From contig CATMVA010000007.1 in assembly GCA_950075865.1 (NCBI GenBank), positions 1 to 64,000 on the forward strand: a stretch of 64,000 nucleotides of DNA, read 5' to 3'. Below, piece by piece: positions 42,671 to 61,267 of the stretch. How positions within the stretch are numbered: position 1 is the first letter of the stretch; each line of letters begins with the position of its first letter. Made by a program: the position numbers and the translations under genes. This stretch comes from an uncultured Oscillospiraceae bacterium. Lineage in GTDB: Bacteria; Bacillota; Clostridia; Oscillospirales; Oscillospiraceae. The notes under the pieces are model-generated. The model saw only the letters and a program-made list of their open reading frames with translations. It did no database searches and was not told where the DNA came from.

Positions 42671-42889
42671 ATGAAAAAAATGTTTTTGCTCTCACGCAAG
42701 CGCCTGGCCGTCCTAGGCTGCGCCTTGGCTGCCATCGCCATGTTCTGGGCGGTGAACTCCCCCCTGGTGGTCGGCGCGTCCGCCACCCAGCGGCAATTGC
42801 CGATTTACTGCGTCCAGCGGGACCAGAAGATGGTGGCCATCTCTTTCGACGCCGCCTGGGGTGATGTTATTTTGCGGCAGGGAATATAA
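42671..42889 (+). pseudogene. pdaB: 5' part of interrupted PdaB-type polysaccharide deacetylase
   Basis: The first 63 codons plus two bases of the next (to 42861) encode a membrane anchor/signal (KRLAVLGCALAAIAMFWAV) and the start of the deacetylase domain, ending in MVAISFDAAWG. The frame then runs into element sequence and stops at 42889 after 9 foreign codons. PdaB proteins carry F-D-x-x-W-G at this point. The remainder lies at 60685-61267. Joining across one copy of CCTGGGG gives 774 bases, 257 codons plus stop, with no shift. AGGAGGG precedes ATG 42671. A possible sporulation-type -10 (CATATACT, 42633) is upstream. Confidence 0.9.
42855..42861 (+). other. Left attachment core (attL)
   Basis: CCTGGGG, also found at the right junction (60678-60684). 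To the left is pdaB sequence; to the right the element begins GGTGATGT. The crossover dinucleotide is inferred to be TG (42857-42858). Confidence 0.85.
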
Positions 42890-42903
42890 GGGGATTTTTT
42901 AAC

Positions 42904-42940
42904 AGCAAGGCAGGAGAGAAAACCCCTCTCCTGCCTTGCT
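42904..42940. repeat. Hairpin at the left end of the element
   Basis: AGCAAGGCAGGAGAG pairs with CTCTCCTGCCTTGCT around a short loop. It lies beyond the 3' end of the PolC-like gene but has no clean T-run; it may block read-through across the attachment site. Confidence 0.65.
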
Positions 42941-42957
42941 TGATGTAGAATGTCATA

Positions 42958-44469
42958 TTAACTCAAAATGCGTATATCGTCACAGCTTGCCGCAATCAGG
43001 CGGGGATCCTCCACCACGACCTTGTGGCGGTCTGCGGCCTCAAAATAGCAAAACTCTTCCAGCATCTCTTTTGTTGTCCTCAGATAGGGCAAATTGCACT
43101 CATCATACTCCAGCATAACCCGCTCTTCATATGTACTGCGGAATTTGGCTTCATCTTCCGGGCCTAAGAGGGCCACATTCCCCGTTGCACATACGGGCTT
43201 TCCAAGACTCTTCCCTATGGCGAGGATCATCTGAGTGATCTCCCGCAGTTCTTCCCCCGTCGCCATTCGATCATTCTGACGTATAAGGGTTTCACTATAC
43301 GAAACCGGTTGAAGCATAAGATAGTCGTACCACGAGGCCACTTGCTGCAAGACATCCATACTCCCTATCCCGTCTTTCACATACCTCAAAATTCTGGACT
43401 GCAATTCACCCGATTCCGTTCCGCTGCCAATCAAGAGTCCATTGCGCAGCTTATTTACTTCACTTTTCAGTACCGTCGGCTTTCCTCGCATCACTCTCTG
43501 TTGAGAAAGTTCGAGAAGGTAAAGCAGATTTTCCAAGCCCTCCTGGTTCCTCACAAGGATGTTGATTGGTGTTGGGCGCATTTTTCTTGACGGCAGTTGT
43601 CCCACCCGAAGTTTTGCCATCAGGCCATTTATTTCGCTCAATTTTTGAACCTGCAATTCCCGCAGCTGTTCCGCAAACCTCGAAAATAACTGCCCAACGA
43701 GATATGCCTCCGTGCTGCCCTGATCGGTTTCTATTCCCAAATGGGCACACACCTCTTGAAGCGTGTATTGGGGGAGATCCGGCAGAAGGATCTGTGCCAG
43801 GCCCAGCGTATCGATCCATGCATTTTGGAGTATTTTGCCATTGCGCTGCATCGCTTGGACAAGAAAGTTCTCCGTAAACTCCGCATTATGCGCTACCAAC
43901 GGGCGGTCCCCAATAAAATCCAGGAAGGAACGCAGCACGGCCTCTTCGCTGGGAGCACCCTGAAGCATCTCGTTGGTGATGCCCGTCAATTCCGTAATCA
44001 GCTCCGGAACCTCGGCTTGGATATAGCTGTGAAAATCCGCAAGTTTTTCTCCCTGCCTCCAAAGCACAGCTGACAGTTCAATGATCCTGTCCATTTTTGC
44101 ATTCAACCCCGTAGATTCCAAGCCTATACAAATAACTTCATCCTGTATGGTTTGATTGGACTCCCCATGAAAGGCAGGGCTGGCATCCAGATCATTTACC
44201 ATATACAGTTCTGTGCCTCCGATGATTTTCAGCTTGCTTTCCCGGCAGGCTTCCGGCGGCAAAGTCAGCACACTGCGGTCAGTAATGGCAATGGCCTCCT
44301 GCCCCCACGCCTCTGCCGTTTGAATGGCTTGGGCCGCTGAAAGGACAGGAATAATTGGCAGTTCCATCTCGGCGGACTTTGTCGTGTGTACCTGAAGCTC
44401 TATCCGCTTTATTTTTTCTGCATCTGTTCTGCCCGTAGGCCCAGGCAGTATCATTTTAGTAGTGTCCAT
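42958..44469 (-). CDS. PolC-like PHP-exonuclease protein, catalytically degenerate, no polymerase
   Basis: A 503-residue protein aligning with the PHP domain of DNA polymerase PolC and its inserted DnaQ-type exonuclease, but with no polymerase palm, fingers or thumb. PHP part 1 is residues about 20-95 (KRIELQVHTTKS, WGQEAIAITDRSVL), the exonuclease about 110-270 (ESTGLNAKMDRIIELSAV, LTGITNEMLQGAP), PHP part 2 about 280-490 (TPINILVRNQEGLENLLYLL, VCATGNVALL, LRTTKEMLEEF). Expected catalytic residues are replaced: H-x-H reads Q-V-H, T-D-H reads T-D-R, exonuclease D-x-E reads G-L-E, N-A-x-F-D reads NAEFT, and the last His/Asp pair is missing. It is probably a structural mimic or binding protein. 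Confidence 0.78.
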   Translation of the reverse strand: MDTTKMILPGPTGRTDAEKIKRIELQVHTTKSAEMELPIIPVLSAAQAIQTAEAWGQEAIAITDRSVLTLPPEACRESKLKIIGGTELYMVNDLDASPAFHGESNQTIQDEVICIGLESTGLNAKMDRIIELSAVLWRQGEKLADFHSYIQAEVPELITELTGITNEMLQGAPSEEAVLRSFLDFIGDRPLVAHNAEFTENFLVQAMQRNGKILQNAWIDTLGLAQILLPDLPQYTLQEVCAHLGIETDQGSTEAYLVGQLFSRFAEQLRELQVQKLSEINGLMAKLRVGQLPSRKMRPTPINILVRNQEGLENLLYLLELSQQRVMRGKPTVLKSEVNKLRNGLLIGSGTESGELQSRILRYVKDGIGSMDVLQQVASWYDYLMLQPVSYSETLIRQNDRMATGEELREITQMILAIGKSLGKPVCATGNVALLGPEDEAKFRSTYEERVMLEYDECNLPYLRTTKEMLEEFCYFEAADRHKVVVEDPRLIAASCDDIRILS

Positions 44470-44552
44470 TAAAGAGATCACTCCTTTTATTTTTACACAT
44501 CTGTTTCTATTTACTACTATCTGTAAGCCTTTGTCAATGGTATCCTAATCAT

Positions 44553-44591
44553 AGCAGATGGGGTAGACAATATATGTCTACCCCATCTGCT
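44553..44591 (-). terminator. Strong hairpin after the XRE gene
   Basis: AGCAGATGGGGTAGACA pairs perfectly with TGTCTACCCCATCTGCT (17-bp stem, 5-base loop). It separates the minus-strand XRE gene from the PolC-like gene. A possible PolC-like gene promoter begins at TTGACA (minus strand, 44532-44537). Confidence 0.7.
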
Positions 44592-44678
44592 CGAAACTCT
44601 TGTTATCTCTTGTCAAAATTTTTTAATCTTTTTTGTGGACATCTACTGTCCACCAAATTTAGTATGATTGCCATAAGG

Positions 44679-44915
44679 TCAATTCTCATCAAATTCTAAA
44701 AAGTTGGAAAATGGTATATCTAAAGCCTCCGCAATATCGAAAAGTGTATCCAGTGACAAGGCCTTCATAACATTGGGCGCTTCCAAGTGCCCAATGAAGG
44801 CCGGGGTCAATCCCACCCGCTCGGCCAGCTCCTCCTGGGTCAGTCCCCGGAGCTTGCGGTAGTAAGCTATTTTCAACCCGATTTGACGGTATTTTTCCAC
44901 ATGAATCTGCTTCAT
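44679..44915 (-). CDS. XRE-family helix-turn-helix regulator (78 aa)
   Basis: A 78-residue Cro/C1-type repressor-like protein: IGLKIAYYRKLRGLTQEELA, the recognition helix region VGLTPAFIGHLEAPNVM and the tail LSLDTLFDIAEALDIPFSNF. GGGGGGA precedes its ATG. It is divergent from the WYL regulator; the 131-bp gap holds a perfect 15-bp palindrome that either could bind. Likely one half of the element's regulatory switch. Confidence 0.87.
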   Translation of the reverse strand: MKQIHVEKYRQIGLKIAYYRKLRGLTQEELAERVGLTPAFIGHLEAPNVMKALSLDTLFDIAEALDIPFSNFLEFDEN

Positions 44916-44943
44916 TTGTGTATCCCCCCGCTACTCTTTATGG

Positions 44944-44991
44944 TATCGGATTCCGATAATAATTGACATGAGCGGGTAGTTATATTATTAT
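44944..44991 (+). promoter_or_regulatory. WYL operon promoter with palindromic operator
   Basis: A perfect 15-bp palindrome TATCGGA-T-TCCGATA (44944-44958) lies 5 bp upstream of TTGACA (44963-44968); TATTAT follows at 44986-44991 with a 17-bp spacer. A TAGTTATAT direct repeat (from 44977 and from 45002) is a second candidate site downstream. Confidence 0.68.
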
Positions 44992-45046
44992 ATCTTTTGG
45001 ATAGTTATATGTGTTTCACAGCACATATGGCGAAGGAGGGAGCTCC

Positions 45047-45988
45047 ATGGCAGAATCCTCGGCAGGCAAATCGGACAGGCTCCTGCAAATCTATTCCCGC
45101 CTGGTAAACGGCGAGATCTTGAGCAAGCGCAACCTGGCCCAGCAATTCCGGGTCACAGAAAAAAGTATCCAGCGGGATATGGAGGCCCTGCGCTGCTTCT
45201 TCGCCGAGCAGGCGTTGAATCAGGATGTGGTCTACGACTCCGCCGCCAAGGGCTACCGCCTTATAGACCCCACGGCCCATAAGCTGAGCAACAGCGAGAT
45301 CCTGGCGGTGTGCAAGATCCTGCTGGAAAGCCGCTCCATGCGTAAGGACGAAATGTTGCCTATCCTGGATAAGCTCATCTCCTTCGGTGTTCCCGAGCAG
45401 AACAAAACAGCGGTGACCCAGCTGGTGGCCAACGAGAAATTTCACTACATCGAGCCTCACCACGGAAGGCCCATTTTAGAGGGCTTGTGGGATATAGGCC
45501 AGGCCATTCAGAATCATCAGGTGCTGGAGATCCAGTATGAACGTATGAAAGAACCGAAGTTAATTACCCGTCAGGTGGAACCCGTAGGCATCATGTTCTC
45601 CGAGTATTATTTCTATCTTACGGCTTTCCTCCGGGAAGTGGATCGACAAGCAAGGTTTGAGCAGCCGAATGATCGTTATCCAACCATCTATCGCATTGAC
45701 CGTATCCAATCTTTCAAGGTATTGAACGAACATTTCCGAGTTCCTTACTCAAGCCGCTTTGAGGAAGGCGAGTTTCGCAAACGAGTGCAGTTTATGTATG
45801 GCGGCAAACTGGAGCGAATCAAGTTCCATTATACCGGCCCCTCCCTGGAAGCTGTTCTGGATCGGCTCCCCACGGCTAAAGTCATCAACGAAGGTACCGA
45901 TGGCTGGGATGTGGAGGCCGAGGTGTTCGGAAAAGGAATCGAAATGTGGCTGAGAAGTCAGGGGAGCTACATAGCAGAAATGCTATGA
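45047..45988 (+). CDS. WYL-domain transcriptional regulator
   Basis: A 313-residue regulator. N-terminal winged helix (about 8-70; LSKRNLAQQFRVTEKSIQRD), linker, then a WYL domain (about 150-230; LEIQYERMKEPKL, RQVEPVGIMFSEYYFYLTAF, YRIDRIQSFKVL) and a C-terminal WCX-like extension (about 245-313; LERIKFHYTGPSLEAVLD). WYL domains sense nucleic acid or nucleotide ligands, and regulators such as BrxR and CapW control anti-phage systems. It is first of a three-gene plus-strand run; a 35-bp gap leads to the next gene. GAAGGAGGG supports ATG 45047. Confidence 0.9.
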   Translation: MAESSAGKSDRLLQIYSRLVNGEILSKRNLAQQFRVTEKSIQRDMEALRCFFAEQALNQDVVYDSAAKGYRLIDPTAHKLSNSEILAVCKILLESRSMRKDEMLPILDKLISFGVPEQNKTAVTQLVANEKFHYIEPHHGRPILEGLWDIGQAIQNHQVLEIQYERMKEPKLITRQVEPVGIMFSEYYFYLTAFLREVDRQARFEQPNDRYPTIYRIDRIQSFKVLNEHFRVPYSSRFEEGEFRKRVQFMYGGKLERIKFHYTGPSLEAVLDRLPTAKVINEGTDGWDVEAEVFGKGIEMWLRSQGSYIAEML

Positions 45989-46023
45989 GACCAAATATTC
46001 ATAATAAAAAAGGAGAATGTAAA

Positions 46024-46572
46024 ATGAGTGACTATGTACAGAAGAAAAAGGATATGCGGTTTCAAAGTCAAGACGCACTGAAAACAGTTCAGGCTGTCAT
46101 TGATGATGCAGATCTCGCTTTGCATGAAAAGTCCCGCAAAATGAAAGATTCCCCTATTGGCGAAGCGGTTGCTGGTGCTGTCGGTGTGGGAGTCGGTGCT
46201 GGAATTGGATTCGCTGGACTTTATTTGGGCGGTTCTGTTGTTGGGCTGAGTGCTGCCGGAATTACCAGTGGCCTCGCCGCCGCAGGTACTTTAATTGGCG
46301 GAGGTATGGCTGCCGGCGTTGCTGTATTAGCGGCACCTGCTGTTGTCCTTGGTGGCACTGCAATGGGTGTTACATCCCATATTAGAAATAAACGTCTGAA
46401 AGAGGCAAAAGAGCTTATTTATAAAAACGCCATTGCAAAGCAAACCGCTATCGTCAAGGCGCTTAAGGAAGAAACCGATGCAGACAAGGAGCGGATTGAC
46501 TATTTGAACGGCTTAAATACTCTTCTTCAGGCCGCCATCAAAGATTTGCAGCACGATCTTGGTATTTCCTAA
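46024..46572 (+). CDS. Glycine-rich membrane protein of unknown function
   Basis: A 182-residue protein. Residues about 1-45 are charged and helical, about 48-120 form a long Gly/Ala-rich hydrophobic block (GAVGVGVGAGIGFAGLYLGG, TSGLAAAGTLIGGGMAAGVA, VLAAPAVVLGGTAMGV) compatible with two or three packed membrane helices of glycine-zipper type, and about 122-182 form a charged coiled coil (NKRLKEAKELIYKNAIAKQT). The layout recalls pore-forming or membrane-perturbing effectors, but no family is recognised. It sits between the WYL regulator and the 467-residue gene (25-bp gap). AGGAG precedes ATG 46024. AT-richer than the host genome. Confidence 0.75.
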   Translation: MSDYVQKKKDMRFQSQDALKTVQAVIDDADLALHEKSRKMKDSPIGEAVAGAVGVGVGAGIGFAGLYLGGSVVGLSAAGITSGLAAAGTLIGGGMAAGVAVLAAPAVVLGGTAMGVTSHIRNKRLKEAKELIYKNAIAKQTAIVKALKEETDADKERIDYLNGLNTLLQAAIKDLQHDLGIS

Positions 46573-46597
46573 TTTTATTTAGCTGGGGAGGATTCTT

Positions 46598-48001
46598 ATG
46601 AGCCAGTTTAAGTACTCCGATGAGGAGCAAAAAATAAATAAGGCTCTTAAAATGAACCAGGATCAGTCCAAGGCTTTATTAGATGATCCTGAAATGGCAC
46701 AGTCAAGAGACTCCGCAGACCAAAGCATCGAATCTTCCCTTGCTCTTCTGAAACAGTTAGGGAAGGGCGATTCTGTGGCTGAATTAGAATCCCAAATACA
46801 AAGTGAACGTGGGAAACGCAAATTGGAGCATCCCCCTCAACTTGAGGAGTGGAACAAAATTGTTCAAGAGGCCGAAGCCTATACCCCCGACACTGTAAAT
46901 TTGGAAGATATTATGTCAGAGGCCGAAATTAGCGCAGCTTTTCAAGAGCTTGATGAAATCAATGACCAATTTTCAAAAAAGACCAGCATTATCAACAAAA
47001 CCGACCTTTCTTTTCTTGCTATTGCAACAGCCCTACAAGTAACAAAGGCGTTATTATTCCCATATATAGCTGCTAAAGCCGGCTATGGAAACGGGTTCGA
47101 TCCAAACGAGCGGATGGATCATAATGACAAATTTATAGAGCAAAAACATAAAGAGGCAAATGACGCTTTCAAAGAGAAAAAACTTGCGAATAACAAGGGT
47201 AAAACCGGCTATTGGATCAATATTTTATATCAAACGCCACCATACGACATTACACGGGGATCACCTGCTGCGGATATCCAACTTCATGGCGGCGAACATC
47301 GGCTGTACACTCTGGGGCACGATCCAATACTCGGTTGGCTTTTTGGCACGATGAATATCCTAACCGATATTGTTACAACAAACCATTTGCAGTCACGACG
47401 GGTACAACGGAATCCAATGATAATTTTGCCTGGGAATGTCCCGATACCCACTATGATACAGGAAAGCTGGGAAATGATAAAGGCTGACAGGTTGAATTTA
47501 CCAGCAGCAGTCTTTGCTCAAGCACAACACCTAAAGTCAGACGAATTTACAAAGGCTGGACTTCCCGTCCCGGTTCTTTCTGTCATTAACGAACAGTTTG
47601 CCAGCAAATTATACAAAGAACACTATGATGCCCTATGCTTTTCACGGGATGCAAAGATTGTAGGTACCTCTTTTATCGTATCAGCGTTAATTGATATGAT
47701 TATCGGTCTTACCCATGGCCTCTTCCGTGATGAAAATGTGCCAAAAGATATTTATGAAGTGCGAACCCGCAAAATTCTTTTGATATCCAATTCTATTGCA
47801 TCCTCCAGCACCATTATTAAAACCGCAATAACATCCAATCCCAAAGATTTGGACATTGGAAGTTTACTCAATACTGTCGTGCATCTTTTTACTGATATTC
47901 GCTTCATTACAAAAGTCAAAAAGGAATTTGTTGAAAGTGAAATTGCCATGAAGCTCCAGGCCGAGCTCTCTGAAATTGATAAGTTGTACGATGAAATTTG
48001 A
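46598..48001 (+). CDS. Uncharacterised 467-aa protein of the WYL-linked operon
   Basis: Not recognised. Residues about 1-140 are acidic and helical (DEEQKINKALKMNQDQSKAL, IMSEAEISAAFQELDEIND). About 145-165 is hydrophobic (LSFLAIATALQVTKALLFPY). A motif-like stretch with three His follows, LHGGEHRLYTLGHDPILGWL, then FGTMNILTDIVTT; a late hydrophobic part contains TSFIVSALIDMIIGLTHGL, followed by basic helices. Several hydrophobic stretches suggest membrane association. It is co-directional with the Gly-rich gene, GGGGAGG before the ATG, and ends at a strong terminator (48214-48277). The WYL regulator suggests a conditional, perhaps defensive, two-gene module; this is inference. Confidence 0.75.
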   Translation: MSQFKYSDEEQKINKALKMNQDQSKALLDDPEMAQSRDSADQSIESSLALLKQLGKGDSVAELESQIQSERGKRKLEHPPQLEEWNKIVQEAEAYTPDTVNLEDIMSEAEISAAFQELDEINDQFSKKTSIINKTDLSFLAIATALQVTKALLFPYIAAKAGYGNGFDPNERMDHNDKFIEQKHKEANDAFKEKKLANNKGKTGYWINILYQTPPYDITRGSPAADIQLHGGEHRLYTLGHDPILGWLFGTMNILTDIVTTNHLQSRRVQRNPMIILPGNVPIPTMIQESWEMIKADRLNLPAAVFAQAQHLKSDEFTKAGLPVPVLSVINEQFASKLYKEHYDALCFSRDAKIVGTSFIVSALIDMIIGLTHGLFRDENVPKDIYEVRTRKILLISNSIASSSTIIKTAITSNPKDLDIGSLLNTVVHLFTDIRFITKVKKEFVESEIAMKLQAELSEIDKLYDEI

Positions 48002-48029
48002 TAATGCAACGAGCAAGAGGAACTAAAAC

Positions 48030-48188
48030 TCGATGATACTCCATCATCTTCTTCAGCTCCGGGCGGTCGGTGCTTTTGCCGCTCATGCGGTCCATGTAAA
48101 CCTCATCCACTCCGAGGCTTTCCATCAGCACCTCCTGCCGGATGGTATTCTGCTCCTGAGTGCTGACACGGATATATCCAATCTTCAA
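48030..48188 (-). pseudogene. N-terminal fragment of a small serine recombinase
   Basis: About 53 residues of a resolvase/invertase: LKIGYIRVSTQEQNTIRQEV with the catalytic Ser, then VYMDRMSGKSTDRPELKKMM. Homology stops at 48030, where the sequence joins unrelated DNA; the rest of the catalytic domain and the DNA-binding part are missing. GAGGTG lies before TTG 48188. It is a relic of an earlier recombination event inside the element, unrelated to the large recombinase at 57330. Confidence 0.85.
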
Positions 48189-48213
48189 GAAACTCACCTC
48201 TCTACTGAACACT

Positions 48214-48277
48214 GTCCCAATAGGGTGGTTCCGGCTCATGGAACGTATCAAAAGCCGGAAACCAACCCTATTGGGAC
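48214..48277 (+). terminator. Long hairpin terminator after the WYL-linked operon
   Basis: GTCCCAATAGGGT-GGTT-CCGGCT pairs with AGCCGG-AAACC-AACCCTATTGGGAC around a 16-base loop and is followed by CTTTTTC on the plus strand. The CCCAATAGGG word recurs in part further right (48296-48315). Confidence 0.75.
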
Positions 48278-48319
48278 TCTTTTTCTGTGTCTCGCTGGGG
48301 TATGCCCTATTGAGACAGG

Positions 48320-48850
48320 CTACTTTTGATTCAACTGTCGCTCCAACAGAGTGCAGTACCCATAGACCCGGTCCATCTCCAAGTCACCCCAACCGTCTGG
48401 GCCGACTTGATCCCCAGAGATAGGGGTGAGGCGCATTTTCCCATCTTCTATGGTTTCCTCTGCCCGGATGGTCGTATCCCCGAAGAAGCAACAGACGGTG
48501 CCATCCCCTTGTTCTACTCTGGAAAGGTTGGAGATAGCCGCCGCATCCCGTATCTGCTCCAGAATGTAGCAGTCCTCTACCTTCCAACCACCGGGGTTGC
48601 CCTCTTCCGCCATGTACCCTTCCAGTCGGACGCCGAGATCCGTTCCATCCAAACTGTCCCCAAAGATAGAATAGCCTCCCATGTTAGGCCGGAAAGCCTT
48701 GTTATTACTGCTCACAACATAGGTTCGGCTCAACAGGGGGTACTCCTTCATAAAGCTATCCACCGTAAAAACAATATGGGCGGTCAGTTCCTCGCCGGGG
48801 TGATTACGGTTCCACTCTTGGAAAATCTCTTTTACTTCCGAGTAAATCAT
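48320..48850 (-). CDS. Hypothetical protein (176 aa) of the recombination module
   Basis: A soluble, acidic protein starting MIYSEVKEIFQEWNRNHPGE. It has a regular alpha/beta look (LTAHIVFTVDSFMKEYPLLS, CYILEQIRDAAAISNLSRVE) and no recognisable motif. It is the last gene of the minus-strand run that carries the YqaJ nuclease and DUF932 genes, with GGAGGAG before its ATG. I cannot assign a function; it is probably accessory to the replication or recombination of the element. Confidence 0.6.
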   Translation of the reverse strand: MIYSEVKEIFQEWNRNHPGEELTAHIVFTVDSFMKEYPLLSRTYVVSSNNKAFRPNMGGYSIFGDSLDGTDLGVRLEGYMAEEGNPGGWKVEDCYILEQIRDAAAISNLSRVEQGDGTVCCFFGDTTIRAEETIEDGKMRLTPISGDQVGPDGWGDLEMDRVYGYCTLLERQLNQK

Positions 48851-48915
48851 ATCCACTCCTCCAATATAAAGTTACCCGGTATCTCTACCATAGAGCAGAG
48901 ATACCGGGCGCTATT

Positions 48916-49680
48916 TTAACTGGCCTCTGCCAGATCAGGCATCAACTCGGCAGCGTTCACACTGTCCATGAACTGCCTGGCATAGGCCCTGGCGTGTTCG
49001 GCCTCCTGAGGGCTGAGCAGGCTCACAGCCTCGAAGTTGAACAGGGCGTAGGGCTTTCCGCTCTTGCTGGTAGCCTTCTCCAAGGAGATCTTCGTCACCA
49101 CACTGTTCACCGGCACCAGATTTCCCGCCAGCCGAGCGGTGTACTTGAGGAACCGGGGCTTACTGGTGACAGGCACCCGCACCAGCAGGGGCAGCACATT
49201 CCCCGGCCGGAGGAGGAACAGCAGCACCGATTCCTTACAGGCCTTGGCGTTGCTCTCGCCGTCCTTGCTGCCAAAGTCATTGTAAGGGCAGCTAAAGCAG
49301 GCCTTGCCATCGTGGGAAACGATGCTGTTCTGGCTCATACAGACCGGCGGCGTACCCTCCACCGGGTCAGGAGTGTCCCAGTAAGCCCTGGGCGTGGTGT
49401 AGTCCAGAATGATCCCGGTCAATTCCTTCTCTGCCTCCTCTCCGGTGAGGCCCGGCACGGAAAACACGGTGGCGCCGCCCGAAGGGGACTTGACCACATC
49501 GAAGAGCTGGAGGGACAGGGGCTGGTTCTTCAGGTTTTCCCGGATCACGTCCAGGGCATTGTTGGAAAGGGCGGCATAGCCAGAGCTGACCGGCGCTATC
49601 GAAGCCGCAGGAGAAGAAATGGGCTCCTGCATAGCCTCCACTTTGTCGCCCAAACGGTCTTTCAGCTTTGTGGTATCCAT
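48916..49680 (-). CDS. Putative single-strand DNA-binding/recombination accessory protein
   Basis: A 254-residue protein with a Cys cluster near residues 112-145 (PPVCMSQNSI, ACFSCPYNDFGS, KACKES) that could bind zinc, flanked by beta-rich sequence (VLLFLLRPGNVLPLLVRVPV, ISLEKATSKSGKPYALFNFE). Proteins of this type sit next to YqaJ nucleases in phages and mobile elements, where single-strand binding or annealing is expected. The assignment is mainly by context: it ends 12 bp before the YqaJ gene begins its own stop, all in one transcript. Confidence 0.55.
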   Translation of the reverse strand: MDTTKLKDRLGDKVEAMQEPISSPAASIAPVSSGYAALSNNALDVIRENLKNQPLSLQLFDVVKSPSGGATVFSVPGLTGEEAEKELTGIILDYTTPRAYWDTPDPVEGTPPVCMSQNSIVSHDGKACFSCPYNDFGSKDGESNAKACKESVLLFLLRPGNVLPLLVRVPVTSKPRFLKYTARLAGNLVPVNSVVTKISLEKATSKSGKPYALFNFEAVSLLSPQEAEHARAYARQFMDSVNAAELMPDLAEAS

Positions 49681-49692
49681 AGTAGATCCTCC

Positions 49693-54222: not shown

Positions 54223-56058
54223 ATGATCGGTCTTGCTACCGGCGCAGCCGTTACTCTCGGGATTGCCTACATCGTCTCGGTCGCAGAGCCTCAGATTCCC
54301 CGGCAAGACAACAAGCTGGAAAACTCCCCTGTCCCTTCGGAGCTATACGTTCCAAACAGCAGGGGCGGATTCTACTTCGGCAACGCTCCCTTACCCGAGG
54401 GACACAAGGCCTGCTGTCAATGCCCTGCTGGCTTTTATGGTAAGCCCATGACTGCGGACGGCAACATCCTTGTGATCGGTGGCCCCGGAAGTGGCAAAAC
54501 GACTGGTCATGTCTATCCGACCATGAAGACTTGGAAGGGAAGCATGATCATGTTGGATGTCAAGGGCGGCATGGAAAAGCTGTGGAGAAGCATTCACAAG
54601 GATGATGGCAAAGAACTTCGGGTATTTGCGCCCTTTCAATGTGGCGCAGACACTTGTACGTTCGACCCATTTTCCCTGATGAAGGCCAATGAGTTAAATG
54701 CGGCCGGACACGCCTGTGATATTGCTGAGGCCCTGGTGGCGATTTCCGCATCGGACAGTGAACCCTTCTGGAGGGAGTCCGCCCAAAACCTTCTGGCAGG
54801 GTTCCTTCTCCATTGCTTCCGCTGTGGTAAGTCCTTCATCGAAGCAATGAAGGATATGAGTGATCGCTCAGTATCTGAGATGGTTGCTCTGATCATGGAT
54901 GGCCCCTGTGAGCAGGCGAAGTCTTTCGTAAGCAAGTTGCAGGGCATGAGTGGAAAAACCGCCGCCTCCGTTGGGCTGAACCTGAACAAGCTATCCAAAT
55001 TTTTGCTGAATCCAGACGTCACCGGTTCGCTGACTCCAAACCCGGGGAGACCCGTGTTGAACTGGATGGAGCTGAACTCGGCAAAAAGGCCCATTGACGT
55101 CATCATTGACGTTCGCGGGGACGCATTGGCTCAGTGTGCGCCTTTGGTTCGTCTGGTACTGACACAGCTGGTAAAGATGCTGTCGTTACGGGGCGAGAAG
55201 CATTATGGAGGGAACGATCTCCCCCCGGTGCTGCTCTGTATCGACGAGTTTCCGCAGTTAGAGTGCATGCCGGCCATGATAAGTGCCTTGACTACCCTCC
55301 GTAGCAAAGGAGTTACCATGGCCCTGTGCGTTCAAAGCCTGGCGTCACTGGAGGCGACTTATGGCCACAACGAGGCCCGAGTCATCTTGGACGCTTGCGG
55401 CTATAAGGTTATACGGAACGCCAACGATGTCGAGTCCCAAAAGTACCTTTCCGAGCTGATCGGCACAACGGACGTTCTCTCGCTCTCGCCCTCTGTCTCA
55501 TGCGGGATGAGTGCCTCCCTTGGCTATCGGCCTGTCGCAACGCCTGGAGTGAGTATCTCCCTTGGCCGTCAGCAAAGGCCGCTTATCTATCCAGAGGCGT
55601 TGGGGCGACTGCGTGGGAAAGCGATTCTAATCACCCCTTATGGGACGTGTCAGGTTATACCGAAGCCGATATATCCCCCGGTGCCTTCCCAAAGGCAAGC
55701 GGAAATCGAGTACCTTACTACTAATCTCGCTTTGCTGTGTTCCATGATAGAGTCATCCGTGAATTCAGCAAATCGGGACAGTAATGACGTCACCCAAAAT
55801 CAAGTGATACCCGCTCCTGTACAAGGAAACGAGAACCCTGCGGCGAGTGGCGTCAGAGATGCGTCGAAGATGGAGGCAGTATGTGAATACTGTGCCAGCG
55901 AAGCAAGAACCGCCAGAGAAATCATGGCGCATCTCAATATTAAGGCCCGCCAGCACTTCTGTGCTGTGATCTTAAGGCCTCTCCTGAAGCAGGGGCGGTT
56001 AGCGATGACCCATCCAGAGTCCCCCAAGCATCCCGATCAGAAGTACCGCACTGTATGA
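54223..56058 (+). CDS. VirD4/TraG-type conjugative coupling ATPase
   Basis: A 611-residue type IV coupling protein. Residues about 1-20 form a membrane helix, Walker A is VIGGPGSGKTTGHVY (near 86), then MIMLDVKGG, and Walker B LLCIDEFPQLECMP (near 340). The C-terminus (about 545-611) is a winged-helix-like domain (EARTAREIMAHLNIKARQHF), unusual for VirD4. It would dock the relaxosome to a transfer channel. Start problem: GGAGG is 30 bases from ATG 54223 and the in-frame codons between (K-I-D-N-D-E-K-I) contain no standard start. Strong homology layout otherwise. Confidence 0.88.
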   Translation: MIGLATGAAVTLGIAYIVSVAEPQIPRQDNKLENSPVPSELYVPNSRGGFYFGNAPLPEGHKACCQCPAGFYGKPMTADGNILVIGGPGSGKTTGHVYPTMKTWKGSMIMLDVKGGMEKLWRSIHKDDGKELRVFAPFQCGADTCTFDPFSLMKANELNAAGHACDIAEALVAISASDSEPFWRESAQNLLAGFLLHCFRCGKSFIEAMKDMSDRSVSEMVALIMDGPCEQAKSFVSKLQGMSGKTAASVGLNLNKLSKFLLNPDVTGSLTPNPGRPVLNWMELNSAKRPIDVIIDVRGDALAQCAPLVRLVLTQLVKMLSLRGEKHYGGNDLPPVLLCIDEFPQLECMPAMISALTTLRSKGVTMALCVQSLASLEATYGHNEARVILDACGYKVIRNANDVESQKYLSELIGTTDVLSLSPSVSCGMSASLGYRPVATPGVSISLGRQQRPLIYPEALGRLRGKAILITPYGTCQVIPKPIYPPVPSQRQAEIEYLTTNLALLCSMIESSVNSANRDSNDVTQNQVIPAPVQGNENPAASGVRDASKMEAVCEYCASEARTAREIMAHLNIKARQHFCAVILRPLLKQGRLAMTHPESPKHPDQKYRTV

Positions 56059-56137
56059 GTGGATCAACTATCCTAATCCACTCATATGCGCAATTAAACA
56101 TTGCCAAGTGGCAAGTCAAGTTCAGGAGGAATCAGTC

Positions 56138-56959
56138 ATGCTAACAACCATTTCCCTATCTTCATCTAACGTCAGTCGTAGGCAAGGGGGAGGCGCTGTA
56201 GGCGCCTATTCTTACGCCTCCGGCCAGAAGTTTCGAGATTCCCGTACTGGGAAAACGTACTATTCCTCAGGCCGCACCGATGTAGCCTCCTGCGGCCTGA
56301 TCCTTCCGCCATCTGCGCCCAAAGGCCTTGAGGACCCCCAGACATTTTTTGATGCCTGGAATCAGGCCGAAAAGCGCAAGGATGCGTCCATGGGCCATAA
56401 GTACATCATCGCCCTGCCCAACGAACTATCTGCTGAGCAGCAGGTCGAAGTTGTAATGAGATTCGTCCATGAGAACTTTACCGAGGCTGGCTATCCGGCC
56501 CTCTATGCGATACACAGCGGCAGAGCCGATGAACATGTGAAGCCTGCAAGCATTGAGGCAACACGTCAGCGTGAGGATAACCCCCACGTCCACATCATCG
56601 CTTCCGCCCGCAAGATAGATGAGCACGGCTTCCAGGCAACGAAGCTGGACGGCCGTGCTACATATAAGAGAGCTTTTCTTTTGGCCCTGCGAAAAAGCTG
56701 GGCCGACCACTTGAACGCAACGTTTGAGCGGCTCGGTCTGGAGATTCGAGTGGATCATCGCAGCTATAAAGATCGCGGGATAGACCGGACTCCCACGGCC
56801 CACATTGGCCCAAAGGCAATGGCCCTGGAGATGCGTGGGAAAAAAACGGCTGTTGGTGACCGCTATCGCAACGCCATTCAACAGAATAGAGCGCGGGAAG
56901 TACAGCGCCCCCGCGATGCCAGCTATGATAAGACGGCCGAATTAGAAGTTGAACGCTGA
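56138..56959 (+). CDS. MobA/MobL-type relaxase, short
   Basis: A 273-residue relaxase-domain protein. N-terminal Tyr region GGGAVGAYSYASGQKFRD, then HKYIIALPNELSAEQQVEVV and the metal-binding HUH-type motif NPHVHIIASARK, all as in MobQ/MobL relaxases that nick oriT. Full-length relatives are usually longer; this one stops at LEVER followed by TGA, and no continuation in another frame was found. CAGGAGG supports ATG 56138. It follows the coupling protein by 79 bp, so the two form the mobilisation unit. Confidence 0.85.
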   Translation: MLTTISLSSSNVSRRQGGGAVGAYSYASGQKFRDSRTGKTYYSSGRTDVASCGLILPPSAPKGLEDPQTFFDAWNQAEKRKDASMGHKYIIALPNELSAEQQVEVVMRFVHENFTEAGYPALYAIHSGRADEHVKPASIEATRQREDNPHVHIIASARKIDEHGFQATKLDGRATYKRAFLLALRKSWADHLNATFERLGLEIRVDHRSYKDRGIDRTPTAHIGPKAMALEMRGKKTAVGDRYRNAIQQNRAREVQRPRDASYDKTAELEVER

Positions 56960-57154
56960 ACAAATGAATTTGCCAGACACGCAGAGGAGCTTATTCAGGC
57001 TGAGACTGTATTGGGTTCGGGGGTAATACTCGTACCTTTACTGCGTAATGCCTCAATTTTATCTGTGTATTATTACTAAGTAAGAACAAGCCGACGGCAG
57101 CGGTGGTTCTATTCGCCGCCGCCCTCGGCATAGAGTAGCACGGGGGGTGATGAG

Positions 57155-57298
57155 ATGACAAGCCAGCAGGAGGTCAAGCCTTGCAAAGAGCAAGATCGCA
57201 CTTTGAGAGTGATTTGCGTAAAACGTAAATTTACTCCGTCACACAAAAGCCGTGATGCAGTCCGGAATTTACTCCGGGCGCATGGGGCAACCGCGTAA
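57155..57298 (+). CDS. Small protein upstream of the recombinase (47 aa)
   Basis: A 47-codon ORF, MTSQQEVKPCKEQDRTLRVI then VKRKFTPSHKSRDAVRNLLR, basic in its second half and with a GGGGGGTG ribosome-binding site 7 bases upstream. It lies 31 bp before the recombinase start in the same direction. Small basic proteins at this position could assist recombination; no family is recognised. The 195 bp before it hold a GC-rich inverted repeat (57090-57130) and nothing else clear. Confidence 0.55.
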   Translation: MTSQQEVKPCKEQDRTLRVICVKRKFTPSHKSRDAVRNLLRAHGATA

Positions 57299-57329
57299 CA
57301 CGAATCACGAATGAAAGGAGGTGCGCCGG

Positions 57330-58934
57330 ATGGCTCGCACCAAACGAATGCCCGGGATCGGGCAGGCAGAAACGGGTAAGGTGGTCTGGCGCGCCGCCTT
57401 ATACGCCCGGTTATCCCGGGATGATGGAGATAAACCAGAGAGCGATAGTATCGTCAACCAGAGAAAGCGTTTGGAACAATTTCTGGCTGGACAAGCCCAA
57501 ATGGAATTTGCCGGTTTCTATGTTGACGATGGCTATACTGGCACCAACTTTGACCGTCCGGGCTTCCAGCGTATGATTGAGGATATTGAGGCTGGGAAGG
57601 TCAACTGCGTTGTCGTCAAAGATCTTTCTCGTTTCGGCCGGGACTACATTGGGGTAGGGGGCTATATGCGAGACTGGTTCCCTGCACATGGAGTTCGGTT
57701 CATTGCATTGGGTGAAGGGGAGGACAGTGAAAAGAACTCATGCGATATGCTCATCCCGTTTAAGAATGTGATGAACGAGCAATATGCCAGAGATATTTCG
57801 CAAAAAGTTCGTAGCTCCATCCAGATCAAGCAGCAGAGTGGGGAATTTATCGGGGCATTTGCTTCCTACGGGTATCGAAAGGATCCAGAGGACCATAACA
57901 AGCTCCTCATTGATCCTCCTGCTGCCGCCGTAGTTCGCCGGATCTTTACCCTTTATGAGCAGGGTATGGGGAAAATACGGATCGCAAAATTGCTAAATGA
58001 GGAAAAGATACCTTGCCCCAGCGAATATAAGCGCCTTAACGGGGAGAAATATCATAATGGCCAACGGCTGGGGAGTACGTCCTATTGGACCTATGCGACG
58101 ATCCACCGCATCTTAAAAAATCAGATGTATGTTGGCCGAATGGAACAGGGCAAAGCCCCTCGCCAGGGAATGCACGGCAAGGCAAAGCAACTCCCCCGGG
58201 AGCAGTGGACGGTCGTGGAAGGGACCCACGAGGCCATTATTGAACCGGATCAGTGGGAGCGCGTGCAATCCCTTTTGCAGAGAGATACCCGCACCCTGAG
58301 CTTTGAGCAAAATGTAAGCCCTTTTGCGGGGTTCCTCCGCTGCGGCGATTGTGGACGAGCCATGAGCAAGACCAACCACCCAGGCGGTATCTATTATTGC
58401 TGCGGCTCCTACAAACGCTATGGTCCCAGTGTCTGTACCCGACATGGAATCTCCTACCGGGATTTGGAGCAGACGGTGCTGGAAGATCTGAACAAGGTTA
58501 TTGCATCAGTGGAGGATCTTCATGCCTTGGCCCAGGAAGCCAAGGAAAACACTCGCCCAACGGATCACAGCGCCGAACAAGAGCGCTTACAGGGTAGTCT
58601 TGAACGAGTGCGAAGGCTCCGCAAATCTGCCTATGAGGACTACAAGGACGACCTTATCAGCAAGGAAGATTACCTTCGTTATAAGGACGACTATCAAGGG
58701 CAGGAAGATGTCATCATGGCCCAGTTGGAGCGCCTGCAAGCGCAAGAAGATACTCCAAAGGAATCGCCTTGGGTCGAGGAACTTCTGAAACTGGGAAAGC
58801 TAACCGAGCTTGACCGGGCTACTGTAGCTGAAACGATTAAGGAAATTTTGGTCTATGAAGATCATGTGGAGATTACATACAATTTCTCGGATGATCTGGG
58901 TTTCTGGACCAATCAGGATGCTCCAAAGCTGTGA
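57330..58934 (+). CDS. Large serine recombinase (integrase of the element)
   Basis: A 534-residue site-specific recombinase. The catalytic domain (about 20-165) has YARLSRDDGDKPESDSI with the nucleophilic Ser near 29, VDDGYTGTNFDRPGF and VVVKDLSRFGRDYIGVG. The recombinase domain (about 195-310) contains GYRKDPEDHNKLLIDP, and the zinc ribbon (about 330-370) has CGDCGRAMSK and YYCCGSYKRYGPSVCTRHG. A coiled-coil segment (about 400-470) is typical of this group. ATG 57330 follows AAAGGAGGTG. It would catalyse insertion into pdaB at CCTGGGG and, with a directionality factor, excision. Confidence 0.96.
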   Translation: MARTKRMPGIGQAETGKVVWRAALYARLSRDDGDKPESDSIVNQRKRLEQFLAGQAQMEFAGFYVDDGYTGTNFDRPGFQRMIEDIEAGKVNCVVVKDLSRFGRDYIGVGGYMRDWFPAHGVRFIALGEGEDSEKNSCDMLIPFKNVMNEQYARDISQKVRSSIQIKQQSGEFIGAFASYGYRKDPEDHNKLLIDPPAAAVVRRIFTLYEQGMGKIRIAKLLNEEKIPCPSEYKRLNGEKYHNGQRLGSTSYWTYATIHRILKNQMYVGRMEQGKAPRQGMHGKAKQLPREQWTVVEGTHEAIIEPDQWERVQSLLQRDTRTLSFEQNVSPFAGFLRCGDCGRAMSKTNHPGGIYYCCGSYKRYGPSVCTRHGISYRDLEQTVLEDLNKVIASVEDLHALAQEAKENTRPTDHSAEQERLQGSLERVRRLRKSAYEDYKDDLISKEDYLRYKDDYQGQEDVIMAQLERLQAQEDTPKESPWVEELLKLGKLTELDRATVAETIKEILVYEDHVEITYNFSDDLGFWTNQDAPKL

Positions 58935-58972
58935 GGCAACATACCGCTATCGTTTGGTAGCGGTATGTTGCC
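58935..58972 (+). terminator. Terminator after the recombinase
   Basis: GGCAACATACCGCTA pairs perfectly with TAGCGGTATGTTGCC, immediately beyond the stop codon; only two T follow. Confidence 0.75.
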
Positions 58973-59033
58973 TTCCTTTCAACGGATGCCTTCTATTTTC
59001 TTGCATATAATTAAAGTATATTTATATTATAGG

Positions 59034-59062
59034 TTGACAAAATGGAAAATATGACTTAGAAT
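59034..59062 (+). promoter_or_regulatory. Promoter of the AAA ATPase gene
   Basis: TTGACA (59034-59039) and TAGAAT (59057-59062), 17-bp spacer, 19 bp before the ATG. Confidence 0.68.
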
Positions 59063-59081
59063 CATACATGAGGTGAGGAAT

Positions 59082-60530
59082 ATGGCCATTACAACGAAAA
59101 GCCAGATCTTAAAAGTGCTCAAAGCCTTTAACCCTTGGTGGGCAACGGGGAGCGTTCACCCGGACTTCACAAAGGATTACCGCCGTTTTGCGTATTATGA
59201 GGCAATGAAGCGGATAGATCAGACCGACTTGCGGCGTACGGTTGTTCTTACCGGCACGCGCCGGGTGGGAAAGACAACCATTCAATATCAAATGATCGAT
59301 ACACTTTTGAAGCGCAAAATCCCGCCGCAGCGTATCGTATTTATTTCTCTGGATCACCCTATGCTGAAGCTCAGTAATTTCAACGACATTTTGGAGTGTT
59401 ACCACGAGAATATCTGCCCGGATCAAAATGTTTTTTACTTTTTTGACGAGATCCAATATGTCGCCGATTGGGACAAGTGGCTGAAAACCATCTATGATAT
59501 GCAGCCTGAAACCCGTATGATCGCTACCGGCTCGGCAAGCCCGGCATTGATGAAGGGCAGTACGGAGAGCGGCGCCGGCCGTTGGAGCATTATTCCCGTT
59601 CCCACCCTTTCCTTTTTTGAGTATTGCTCTTTGATTGGGGTAAATGTCCCGGATTTAGGGCCCAGTGTTCGCCCAACGGCTTTTCAGCGTATGACCCAAG
59701 CCGAGCGTGCATCCATCATGCTGAAATTGGAGCCAATCCAGAATCACTTTATTCGTTATCTGCAAGTGGGCGGTTTTCCAGAGTTGGCCTTGGCCTCCAA
59801 CGATCTTATGGCACAGCAGATCATGCGGGAGGATGTGGTAGACAAGGTTTTGAAGCGCGACCTGCCCTCCCTCTATAACATCCGCAGTGCCACAGAGTTA
59901 GAGCGGATCTTTTTATATCTGTGCAACGTATCCTCCAACATTGTTTCTTTTTCTGCCTTAGCAAAAGAGCTGGAGGGTGTTTCCCGGCCCACGGTAGAAA
60001 ACTATATTAACTATTTGGAAAGTGCTAATCTCATTTATCAGAGCTGGCCGGTGGAAATGGCTGGGCGGAAGGTGCTGAAATCCCAGCCGAAGATCTATAT
60101 TGCCGATGCAGCCATCCGCAATGCGGTTTTGATGGATGATGATGTGCTGACCAATCCCATCGAATTGGGAAAGATGGTGGAAACCGCTGTTTATAAGCAT
60201 GTGGCGGCATTCTATTATCAGCAGGCTACACGGGTAGGTTACTACCGGGGCGGCCGGTCAGGGAATGAAATTGACATCGTTGTGGATTATCCCAACATCA
60301 AAAATATTCTGATCGAGGTCAAATATCGGGAGCAGGCTCCCGTTCCCAACACCGATGCCATCATTGAGCTTTCCGACCAGGCCAGTGCCGGTATTATCAT
60401 TACAAAACGCGCAGATGATTATGGGACGCATCATACTCCCAGCGGAAAAGAGCTCATTCGCATCCCGGCTTTTGCGTTTTTGTACCTGCTGGGAAACGCC
60501 GAGCGGTATGGCTACCGGGGAAAAGATTGA
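59082..60530 (+). CDS. AAA ATPase of the AAA_14/DUF4143 family
   Basis: A 482-residue protein. Residues about 50-190 form an ATPase: Walker A VLTGTRRVGKTTIQYQM, Walker B FYFFDEIQYVADWDKWL, sensor ATGSASPAL. The C-terminal DUF4143 part (about 250-480) ends with GNEIDIVVDYPNIKNILIEV-K, a PD-(D/E)XK-like nuclease pattern. Proteins of this type are very common, often in multiple copies, in anaerobes, with no settled function; some act in defence or mobile-element maintenance. It has its own promoter, lies after the recombinase and fills the right end of the element, a typical cargo position. GAGGTGAGG precedes ATG 59082. Confidence 0.88.
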   Translation: MAITTKSQILKVLKAFNPWWATGSVHPDFTKDYRRFAYYEAMKRIDQTDLRRTVVLTGTRRVGKTTIQYQMIDTLLKRKIPPQRIVFISLDHPMLKLSNFNDILECYHENICPDQNVFYFFDEIQYVADWDKWLKTIYDMQPETRMIATGSASPALMKGSTESGAGRWSIIPVPTLSFFEYCSLIGVNVPDLGPSVRPTAFQRMTQAERASIMLKLEPIQNHFIRYLQVGGFPELALASNDLMAQQIMREDVVDKVLKRDLPSLYNIRSATELERIFLYLCNVSSNIVSFSALAKELEGVSRPTVENYINYLESANLIYQSWPVEMAGRKVLKSQPKIYIADAAIRNAVLMDDDVLTNPIELGKMVETAVYKHVAAFYYQQATRVGYYRGGRSGNEIDIVVDYPNIKNILIEVKYREQAPVPNTDAIIELSDQASAGIIITKRADDYGTHHTPSGKELIRIPAFAFLYLLGNAERYGYRGKD

Positions 60531-60577
60531 TGAGATTCATTCGTACCGAATAAGTAATTATTTTTGTAATAAAGGGC

Positions 60578-60606
60578 TTGCTGAATCTCTCCCACTGTGC
60601 TATCAT
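60578..60606 (+). promoter_or_regulatory. Outward-reading promoter at the right end
   Basis: TTGCTG (60578-60583) and TATCAT (60601-60606), 17-bp spacer. It reads towards the attachment site and the 3' half of pdaB; in a circular element it would read into the left end. Confidence 0.5.
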
Positions 60607-60618
60607 AATATTATAAAA

Positions 60619-60667
60619 AATACGGTCATTGACACCCTTCAAACCATTGGGCGCCAATGACCGTATT
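60619..60667. repeat. Inverted repeat next to the right attachment site
   Basis: AATACGGTCATTG and its exact complement CAATGACCGTATT flank a 23-base spacer. The right arm forms part of the terminal repeat of the element, so it may be a recombinase arm site or a hairpin that ends transcription before the junction. Confidence 0.65.
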
Positions 60668-60677
60668 ATTACATCAC

Positions 60678-60684
60678 CCTGGGG
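60678..60684 (+). other. Right attachment core (attR)
   Basis: CCTGGGG at the right junction, identical to 42855-42861. To its right the pdaB frame resumes with CAACGAGGACACC. Crossover inferred at TG (60680-60681). Confidence 0.85.
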
Positions 60685-61267
60685 CAACGAGGACACCCAG
60701 CAGCTCATCGACATTCTGGCCAAATACAACATCAAAGCCACCTTTTTCGTGGTGGGAGACTGGGTGGACAAGTACCCGGAGTCGGTCAAGGCCCTTTCCG
60801 ACGCGGGCCACGAGGTCATGAACCACTCCAACCACCACGACCACTTCTCCAAGCTCTCCCGGGATCAGATCATCGCCGATGTGAACGCCTGCAACGACAA
60901 GATCGAGACGGTGACCGGGGTGCGCCCCACCCTCATCCGGCCACCCTATGGAGAGTATGACGACAACGTTATCACCGCCATCCGTGCAGCAGGTATGGAG
61001 CCCATCCAGTGGGATGTGGACTCCCTGGACTGGAAGGACCTGTCCGCCGCCGAGATCACCAAGCGGGTCACCACCAAGGTCCAGGCCGGGTCCATCGTCC
61101 TCTTCCACAACGCCGCCAAGCACACCCCCGAGGCCCTGCCCACCATTCTGGAGACCCTTCTTCAGGAGGGCTACACCTTCGTACCCATCTCGGAGATCAT
61201 TCTTCCCGGCGAGTATAACGTGGACTACACCATCGATCACACCGGCCGCCAATGCCCGGCGGGCTGA
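60678..61267 (+). pseudogene. pdaB: 3' part of interrupted PdaB-type polysaccharide deacetylase
   Basis: From 60685 the frame reads NEDTQQLIDILAKYNIKATF, then DWVDKYPESVKALSDAGHEV, metal-site H-S-N-H-H, the T-L-I-R-P-P-Y-G-E-Y motif, WDVDSLDWKDLS and LFHNAAKHTPEALP, which is the complete NodB-homology domain minus its first strand. Without the 5' part there is no start codon or export signal. Restored, the protein is 257 residues, like Bacillus PdaB (about 254). PdaB is a sporulation protein needed to keep the spore cortex. The outward promoter at 60578 could transcribe this fragment but not give a normal protein. Confidence 0.9.

What the first reader, a model, noticed from the sequence alone, without database searches (positions are those of the whole stretch)
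42671..61267. A 17.8-kb element splits a sporulation deacetylase gene and could be excised to restore it
Seen: the 5' part (42671-42861) and 3' part (60685-61267) of one PdaB-type gene are separated by foreign DNA; both junctions carry CCTGGGG; rejoining gives exactly 774 bases in frame, 257 codons plus stop. A large serine recombinase lies near the right end. Known: skin in sigK and SP-beta in spsM are excised by serine recombinases during sporulation to rebuild the host gene. Inference: this may be the same type of regulated interruption, here in pdaB, which I do not know as a described target. The element also looks mobilisable, unlike a domesticated skin.
Basis: partly seen in the sequence, partly recalled or inferred. 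Interest (0 to 1): 0.93.

Follow-up and report, generated by a model that had tools for sequence, protein, structure and literature searches.

The report
Mobile element splitting spore gene pdaB
In a likely gut bacterium a 17.8-kb element with mobility-type genes cuts a pdaB-type gene, predicted to be needed for making spores, in two at a site that related elements also use across the bacterial family, and the element likely pops out during spore formation so that the gene would be whole when it is needed.

Summary
In detail: 42671-42861 plus 60685-61267 join to 774 bp (257 codons) of a PdaB-type gene, split by a 17,823-bp element with CCTGGGG at both ends. It is not a one-off: among 400 family genomes at least 25 have pdaB split at this codon and 35 at a second one (aa ~175), 8 at both; site 2 goes with an unrelated serine-recombinase family. 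Element ends form a conserved inverted-repeat attP around a TG core. In 28 of 28 relatives of the recombinase examined, a tiny conserved, unannotated protein (about 36-47 aa) is encoded just upstream (by eye), and a promoter motif learned from intact pdaB genes is enriched there (score >=10: 15/26 versus 52/600 other ORFs). SP-beta (SprB, 58 aa) and gin (GirX, 42 aa) have this layout. Split copies keep frame and most invariant residues; the host has spo0A and spoIVA. Best reading: a mobilisable element excised in the mother cell, restoring pdaB. Excision was not seen; the window's own promoter match is weak (10.6 bits); a fused PdaB-domain paralog exists. The literature searches listed no report of pdaB as such a target.

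The parts
42610..42642 (+). predicted mother-cell-type promoter of pdaB (GTCATAGTT...TCATATACTTC)
   Evidence: score 13.4 with the motif learned from 80 intact pdaB upstream regions
42671..42861 (+). 5' part of the pdaB-type gene (codons 1-63 and two bases of 64)
42855..42861 (+). attL core CCTGGGG
42862..42877 (+). left attP arm TGATGTTATTTTGCGG
   Evidence: left-end pattern in 16 of 16 ends
42862..60684 (.). the 17,823-bp element
42958..44481 (-). RNase_T exonuclease / PHP domain protein
45011..45988 (+). WYL-domain regulator
45946..48001 (+). two ORFs resembling PADLOC models BnzA (partial match) and BnzB; possible defence cargo
   Evidence: E 2.4e-12 and 4.3e-28
49693..51582 (-). YqaJ/RecE-like exonuclease and DUF932 protein
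52322..52585 (+). excisionase-type helix-turn-helix protein (alternative directionality-factor candidate)
   Evidence: HTH_17, TIGR01764 excise
54223..56058 (+). VirD4/TraG-type coupling protein
56108..56959 (+). MobA/MobL (MobQ-like) relaxase
57106..57138 (+). predicted mother-cell-type promoter of the recombinase operon (-10 CATAGAGT)
   Evidence: score 10.6, weak by itself; family statistics
57155..57298 (+). 47-aa ORF, candidate recombination directionality factor
   Evidence: homologous small ORF in 28 of 28 recombinase relatives by eye, 22 of 28 by a regular expression
57330..58934 (+). large serine recombinase
   Evidence: Resolvase, Recombinase and zinc-ribbon domains, phrog_95 integrase
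59082..60530 (+). AAA_14 / DUF4143 ATPase
60619..60667 (.). hairpin next to the right end
   Evidence: -24.5 kcal/mol, z -6.7
60661..60677 (+). right attP arm CCGTATTATTACATCAC
60678..60684 (+). attR core CCTGGGG
60685..61267 (+). 3' part of the pdaB-type gene

Best explanation
A 17.8-kb element sits at a CC-TG-GGG core inside a pdaB-type gene, and its own large serine recombinase, helped by a predicted 47-aa partner, would likely cut it out in the sporulating mother cell and rejoin the gene. Shown by sequence: the insertion, the shared core, the empty site in relatives, the conserved attP ends, the recombinase, the small ORF before it, and a relaxase and coupling protein. Inferred: (1) the small protein is the directionality factor that turns integration into excision; (2) the operon is read by a mother-cell sigma factor (sigma-E or sigma-K type), because upstream regions in the family share the -35/-10 motif of the pdaB promoter; (3) excision between attL and attR restores codon 64 and PdaB; (4) the forespore keeps the element, so it is inherited, and it can also be mobilised to other cells by the transfer machinery of a helper.
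For: Exact joined frame and core. Empty site in relatives: TGGGG at these codons in 88 of 88 intact loci (82 distinct). Recurrence: at least 25 of 400 family genomes split at this codon, a junction with attP arms seen in 24 of the 25; 22 of the 27 genomes with a recombinase homologue at E<=1e-160 are split here. Small ORF before 28 of 28 recombinase relatives by eye. Promoter score >=10 in 15 of 26 of these operons against 2 of 14 other recombinases and 52 of 600 other ORFs, Mann-Whitney p 7e-9 and 9e-4. A second, unrelated recombinase family at site 2 shows the same plan. Split copies: no stop in 15 of 15 3' parts, 9 of 15 without change at 62 invariant residues. Host has spo0A and spoIVA. 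pdaB is listed in the sigma-E (mother-cell) regulon of B. subtilis (PMC4703394, passage). Precedents: SprB 58 aa with a mother-cell promoter (PMC4191935, passages), GirX 42 aa (PMC5595907, passages), CD1234 (PMC5025042, passages).
Against: No excised circle or empty junction was seen for this genome: the attP core with up to one mismatch occurs in 1 of 400 genomes, inside a chromosomal contig. The window's own promoter score, 10.6, is reached by about 9% of other ORF upstream regions. pN/pS to the nearest intact neighbour is higher in split than in intact genes (median 0.255 against 0.161, p 0.004), though the neighbours are more distant. The genome has an intact PdaB-like domain in a fusion protein. 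Five of 27 genomes with the recombinase are not split at this codon or show no pdaB ortholog piece. Two of 29 recombinase hits have an in-frame TGA. An Xis-like protein at 52322 is a competing directionality-factor candidate.
Confidence: 0.72

Rival explanations
1. An ordinary mobilisable element that uses the conserved catalytic codons of pdaB as its attB. It would leave only for transfer; pdaB stays broken, and the host lives with it because of the fused paralog or because it seldom sporulates.
For: Relaxase and coupling protein in the element; recent exchange of the AAA_14 gene between G000 and G002 (dS 0.19 against 0.64 for host galE); fused paralog; weak promoter match in the window; higher pN/pS in split genes.
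Against: Small elements such as G145 (4.0 kb: recombinase plus two metabolic-type ORFs by my reading) keep an intact recombinase without any relaxase in view; split genes keep invariant residues; the promoter enrichment and the small ORF; two unrelated systems with the same plan in one gene.
Confidence: 0.21
2. A dead insertion: the element no longer moves and pdaB is a young pseudogene.
For: Higher pN/pS in split genes; in-frame TGA in 2 of 29 recombinase hits in other genomes.
Against: In the window the recombinase is intact, att arms and core are intact, both gene parts are in frame; recombinase dN/dS against G002, G003 and G005 is 0.04-0.08.
Confidence: 0.05
3. Assembly artefact of a draft genome.
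For: 37 contigs, 89% completeness; no read data here.
Against: The same split at the same codon with the same arms in the single-contig genomes G092 and G218 and in G316, whose contig length and small protein equal those recorded for Flavonifractor sp. An10.
Confidence: 0.02

Closest known systems
SP-beta prophage in spsM, B. subtilis (SprA, SprB)
   Same: Serine recombinase; a tiny partner (58 aa) with a mother-cell promoter directly upstream; short core; a mother-cell sporulation gene is restored (PMC4191935, passages)
   Different: SP-beta is an active phage; here mobilisation genes, another gene and unrelated small-protein sequence; in SP-beta only the partner is sporulation-controlled, here recombinase and partner look like one operon; excision not shown here
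gin element in gerE, B. cereus (GirC, GirX)
   Same: Non-phage element; 42-aa partner; recombinase and partner both expressed in sporulation; inverted-repeat att sites (PMC5595907, discussion section and passages)
   Different: gin has no conjugation structural genes; different target; found in a few Bacillus strains, here a family-wide site
skin elements in sigK (B. subtilis; C. difficile CD1231, CD1234)
   Same: Serine recombinase; the directionality factor is under sigma-E and SpoIIID in C. difficile (PMC5025042, passages)
   Different: Prophage-derived; target is a sigma factor and so a developmental switch, here a late enzyme gene
yin element in yabG, C. botulinum
   Same: A sporulation gene split, excision seen in culture (PMC10747680, abstract and introduction)
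   Different: Prophage-like, reported from one strain
Tn4451-type and other mobilisable elements with serine recombinases (recalled)
   Same: Large serine recombinase plus a Mob protein
   Different: Here one fixed target codon in a sporulation gene and a mother-cell-type promoter

Membership tests
Sporulation gene-intervening element (skin / SP-beta / gin class) | Insertion splits a mother-cell sporulation gene in frame-restorable form | tested here: met
   Joined frame; pdaB-type by best model, below its cut-off; mother-cell expression from B. subtilis literature, not tested in this host
Sporulation gene-intervening element (skin / SP-beta / gin class) | Short identical core at both ends; empty site in relatives | tested here: met
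Sporulation gene-intervening element (skin / SP-beta / gin class) | Encodes its own site-specific recombinase | tested here: met
Sporulation gene-intervening element (skin / SP-beta / gin class) | Recombinase or directionality factor under mother-cell control | tested here: inconclusive
   Family-wide motif enrichment, weak score for the window itself; no expression data
Sporulation gene-intervening element (skin / SP-beta / gin class) | Excision during sporulation restores the gene | not testable with these tools
   No culture or reads; no circle found in assemblies
PdaB family (TIGR02764) | Score above the curated cut-off | tested here: not met
   213.4 bits against 237.4, still the best-scoring model; hence 'PdaB-type'
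Integrative mobilisable element | Integrase, relaxase and coupling protein inside precise ends | tested here: met
   no full type IV secretion set noticed in the scanned ORFs (not every small ORF was scanned)
Integrative mobilisable element | oriT | not tested
   oriT was not sought
Integrative mobilisable element | Transfer to another cell | not testable with these tools
   Recent exchange of the AAA_14 gene between genomes is only indirect evidence

The most novel reading that the evidence does not exclude
Across the Oscillospiraceae pdaB is a gene in pieces put together by DNA splicing in the mother cell: two unrelated serine recombinases, each with its own tiny partner protein and a pdaB-like mother-cell promoter, hold two different codons of the same gene, at times both at once, so that spore formation depends on one or two programmed excisions.
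Probability: 0.6. Interest if true: 0.93.

Novelty: new variant of a known kind. Interest (0 to 1): 0.86.

Why it matters
Programmed DNA excision in sporulation is known from a handful of genes, in Bacillus and a few Clostridium or Clostridioides strains. Here one enzyme gene is split in at least 52 of 400 genomes of a family, at two codons, by two unrelated recombinases that share one apparent regulatory plan, and the element in the window carries mobilisation genes. If true, gene splitting is a common state of spore formers in this family, a conjugation-type element can live harmlessly in a needed gene, and annotation pipelines would call pdaB broken where it may be working. The conserved att sites and small partner proteins would also be new, directly testable recombination systems.

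Tried and rejected
Free circle: the joined attP core was searched in 400 genomes (one copy, in a chromosomal contig of G316) and in viral contigs (three contigs, each with two copies 24 bp apart inside a repeat and no recombinase homologue at 1e-5 in the stretches; rejected as unrelated). Viral contigs hold only distant recombinase relatives (5 loci, 39-41% identity).

Shared gene set: over nine elements no BLAST family (1e-6) was found in more than six; the largest was the recombinase, which the greedy ORF choice hid in G094, G226 and G365. So I have no evidence for a larger conserved excision module; the small ORF was found only by reading directly upstream. A first claim that it is absent from other recombinases was mended: the regular expression finds it in 22 of 28 relatives (28 of 28 by eye) and in 1 of 16 other serine recombinases of the genus (0 of 14).

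Promoters: a rigid B. subtilis-like sigma-E pattern hit 8 of 80 pdaB and 6 of 28 recombinase upstream regions (shuffle means 1.7 and 1.65); CATA-N3-T alone hit 60 of 80 and 19 of 28 (7.2 and 5.8). These were replaced by a motif learned from the 80 pdaB regions only (shuffles there keep base composition only). In one search the region scanned was -300 to -90 for recombinases (26 of 28 relatives and 14 of 16 others had it) and the 210 bases before each of 600 mechanical ORFs of 150 aa or more, so the control is not perfectly matched.

Selection: pN/pS went against the reading and is confounded by distance; the invariant-residue test covers columns 69-240 of 15 split 3' parts, 88 near intact loci (six repeats) and 20 distant intact ones (0-9 changes, 6 of 20 with none). 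A first dS run had frame slips in two genes and was redone.

Partial pdaB matches at contig ends in G005 (aa 119) and G015 (aa 94) were not counted as splits at those codons. The 25/35/8 tally rests on alignment boundaries (G005 and G008). One search looked at 76 chosen of the 400, and the match lists are truncated; contig ends were not excluded one by one for site 2 (for example G237, G339). Stops reported inside the G163 and G264 matches lie outside the pdaB pieces.

Papers: ten searches, listings only except for the papers named; open-licence papers only. None listed a report of an element in pdaB.
Full report
Observation. The two gene parts, the CCTGGGG cores and the 774-bp joined frame are as described. 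The insertion falls in the codons for SFDAAWG-NEDT. The 5' part carries the N-terminus and that motif; the 3' part carries most of the deacetylase domain. The joined protein scores best with the PdaB model TIGR02764, though under its cut-off.

Host. The genome is 2.29 Mb in 37 contigs, 89% complete. The nearest named pdaB loci are Oscillospiraceae, Pseudoflavonifractor and Flavonifractor records, many from gut samples by their titles. It has spo0A (159 bits) and spoIVA (707 bits), families that ring only in B. subtilis among 14 control genomes, so it looks like a spore former.

Recurrence. In the genus (16 genomes) pdaB is whole in 8, split at this codon in G000, G002, G003 and G005, and split at a second place (aa ~175) in G008 and G012; G015 is cut by a contig end and G013 has no match at 1e-30. 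In 400 family genomes alignment boundaries give 25 splits at site 1 and 35 at site 2, 8 of them at both, 52 genomes in all; for 24 of the 25 a junction with attP arms was read (all but G228). Of the 27 genomes with a recombinase homologue at E <= 1e-160 (29 hits, 50-100% identity), 22 have pdaB split at site 1; G050, G281 and G376 are unsplit there, and G101 and G395 show no pdaB ortholog piece. In 295 genomes of the order 4 have a hit at E <= 1e-150, one of them outside the family. Element sizes at site 1 run from about 4.0 kb (G145) and 5.2 kb (G094) to about 57 kb (G053).

Attachment site. Sixteen left and 24 right ends were read; 16 of 16 left ends follow TGGG[GC]-N-[AG]A[TC]G-n5-7-[GA]CG[GC], and 22 of 24 right ends the mirrored arm (of the two misses, G350 is close and G327 was read at a shifted position). 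In the window the reconstructed attP contains ACATCACCC-TG-GGGTGATGT, perfect 9-bp arms around TG. Empty sites keep TGGGG in 88 of 88 intact loci, 82 of them distinct.

The operon. A short protein (consensus RVxRxFxGxR...LRxLIxAH) is encoded directly upstream of the recombinase in 28 of 28 relatives looked at (by eye; 24 of these genes are from genomes split at site 1, and three more hits were not looked at: G376, the second of G094, and G002, whose start is missing). The same regular expression finds it before 22 of 28 relatives and 1 of 16 other serine recombinases of the genus. It has no Pfam family over cut-off and no PHROG at 0.01; 78 database proteins match the profile and the names shown are 'hypothetical protein' or uncharacterised. 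A two-block motif learned from 80 intact pdaB upstream regions (nnCATGT-N14-GCATAnAGTGG; that CATA is the -10 type of sigma-E and sigma-K is recalled) scores >= 10 before 15 of 26 of these operons, 2 of 14 other recombinases and 52 of 600 other ORFs. In 14 of 22 automatically placed small ORFs the best -10 lies 23-66 bp before the start. For the window the score is 10.6, modest by itself.

Site 2. A second recombinase family (50-76% identity to the G008 protein; 24-27% to the window's recombinase) was found with the aa ~175 split in 14 of the 23 genomes whose site-2 DNA I fetched, several only in part. In 12 of 13 it has its own, different small upstream ORF (M-x-I-x-H-T-H-P type, by eye), and the pdaB-type promoter motif scores >= 10 in 9 of 13, up to 21.5. 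Two unrelated systems that share plan and target argue for selection on sporulation timing rather than chance.

Is the split gene alive? No stop in 15 of 15 3' parts. Nine of 15 keep all 62 invariant residues; the worst (G094, 9 changes) equals intact copies of its own genus (L259 and L267, 9 each). Against: pN/pS to the nearest intact neighbour is higher in split genes (median 0.255 against 0.161, p 0.004), with more distant neighbours. Recombinase dN/dS against G002, G003 and G005 is 0.04-0.08. Recombinase and pdaB distances correlate (Mantel r 0.63, 0 of 5000 permutations, n 22), with clear exceptions such as G316/G194 (recombinase 96%, pdaB 85%) and G094/G387 (59%, 91%): a long shared history with some exchange.

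Comparison. SprB of SP-beta is a 58-aa protein with a mother-cell promoter whose -10 is perfect and -35 imperfect (PMC4191935, passages). GirX is 42 aa, expressed in sporulation and required with GirC for excision (PMC5595907, passages). CD1234 is under sigma-E and SpoIIID and confines skin excision to the mother cell (PMC5025042, passages). The window's system works like these; membership is not complete because excision was not tested. pdaB is spoVIE of the sigma-E regulon in B. subtilis, listed with a value of 5 that I read as percent sporulation (PMC4703394, passage), and SpoIIID binds upstream of ybaN, its older name (PMC517825, passages). That fits a model in which only the mother-cell chromosome is rearranged. 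The targets named in what I read are sigK, spsM, spoVFB, gerE, yabG and spoVR.

Element. Besides the recombinase operon it holds a MobQ-like relaxase and a VirD4-type coupling protein, an excisionase-type HTH protein, phage-type recombination genes and a pair resembling PADLOC's BnzA and BnzB. A 463-aa protein elsewhere in the genome carries an intact PdaB-like domain on an anti-sigma-like N-terminus and could soften a pdaB defect; it is the main reason to keep the plain-mobile-element rival.

Noticed in passing
L113, L114, L239, L276-L295 (other genomes): A second, unrelated serine-recombinase family splits the same gene at aa ~175, with its own conserved small upstream ORF and pdaB-type promoter motif.
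   Followed up: partly
L236 (G330), L240 (G053), L117 with L116 (G002): Three genomes hold a 3' part running to aa 256 and, in addition, a spare copy of about aa 172-256.
   Followed up: no
L249; G316:C2:164095-164112: An intact attP inside a chromosomal contig of G316, about 4 kb past pdaB, with a second recombinase 96% identical to the first 6.6 kb further on.
   Followed up: partly
L141 (G005): The end that lies at the right junction in the window lies at the left junction in G005, with the recombinase on the opposite strand: the element seems inserted the other way round.
   Followed up: no
45946-48001: Two ORFs resembling BnzA and BnzB of PADLOC, possible anti-phage cargo behind a WYL regulator.
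   Followed up: no
59082-60530: The AAA_14/DUF4143 gene is 99% identical in protein to that of G002 (dS 0.19) while host galE has dS 0.64 and the recombinase 0.96: recent exchange between elements.
   Followed up: partly
L023 1492-2883 (-): A PdaB-like domain fused to an anti-sigma-like N-terminus beside a sigma-factor-like ORF.
   Followed up: partly
47916-48251 (-): Remnant of a small serine recombinase N-terminus inside the element.
   Followed up: no
L163, L168: Recombinase genes of G194 and G226 each contain one in-frame TGA.
   Followed up: no
L203 8413-12422 (G145): A 4.0-kb element in pdaB with the recombinase and, by my reading of the translations, an oxidoreductase-like and a TruA-like ORF but no mobility genes.
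   Followed up: no
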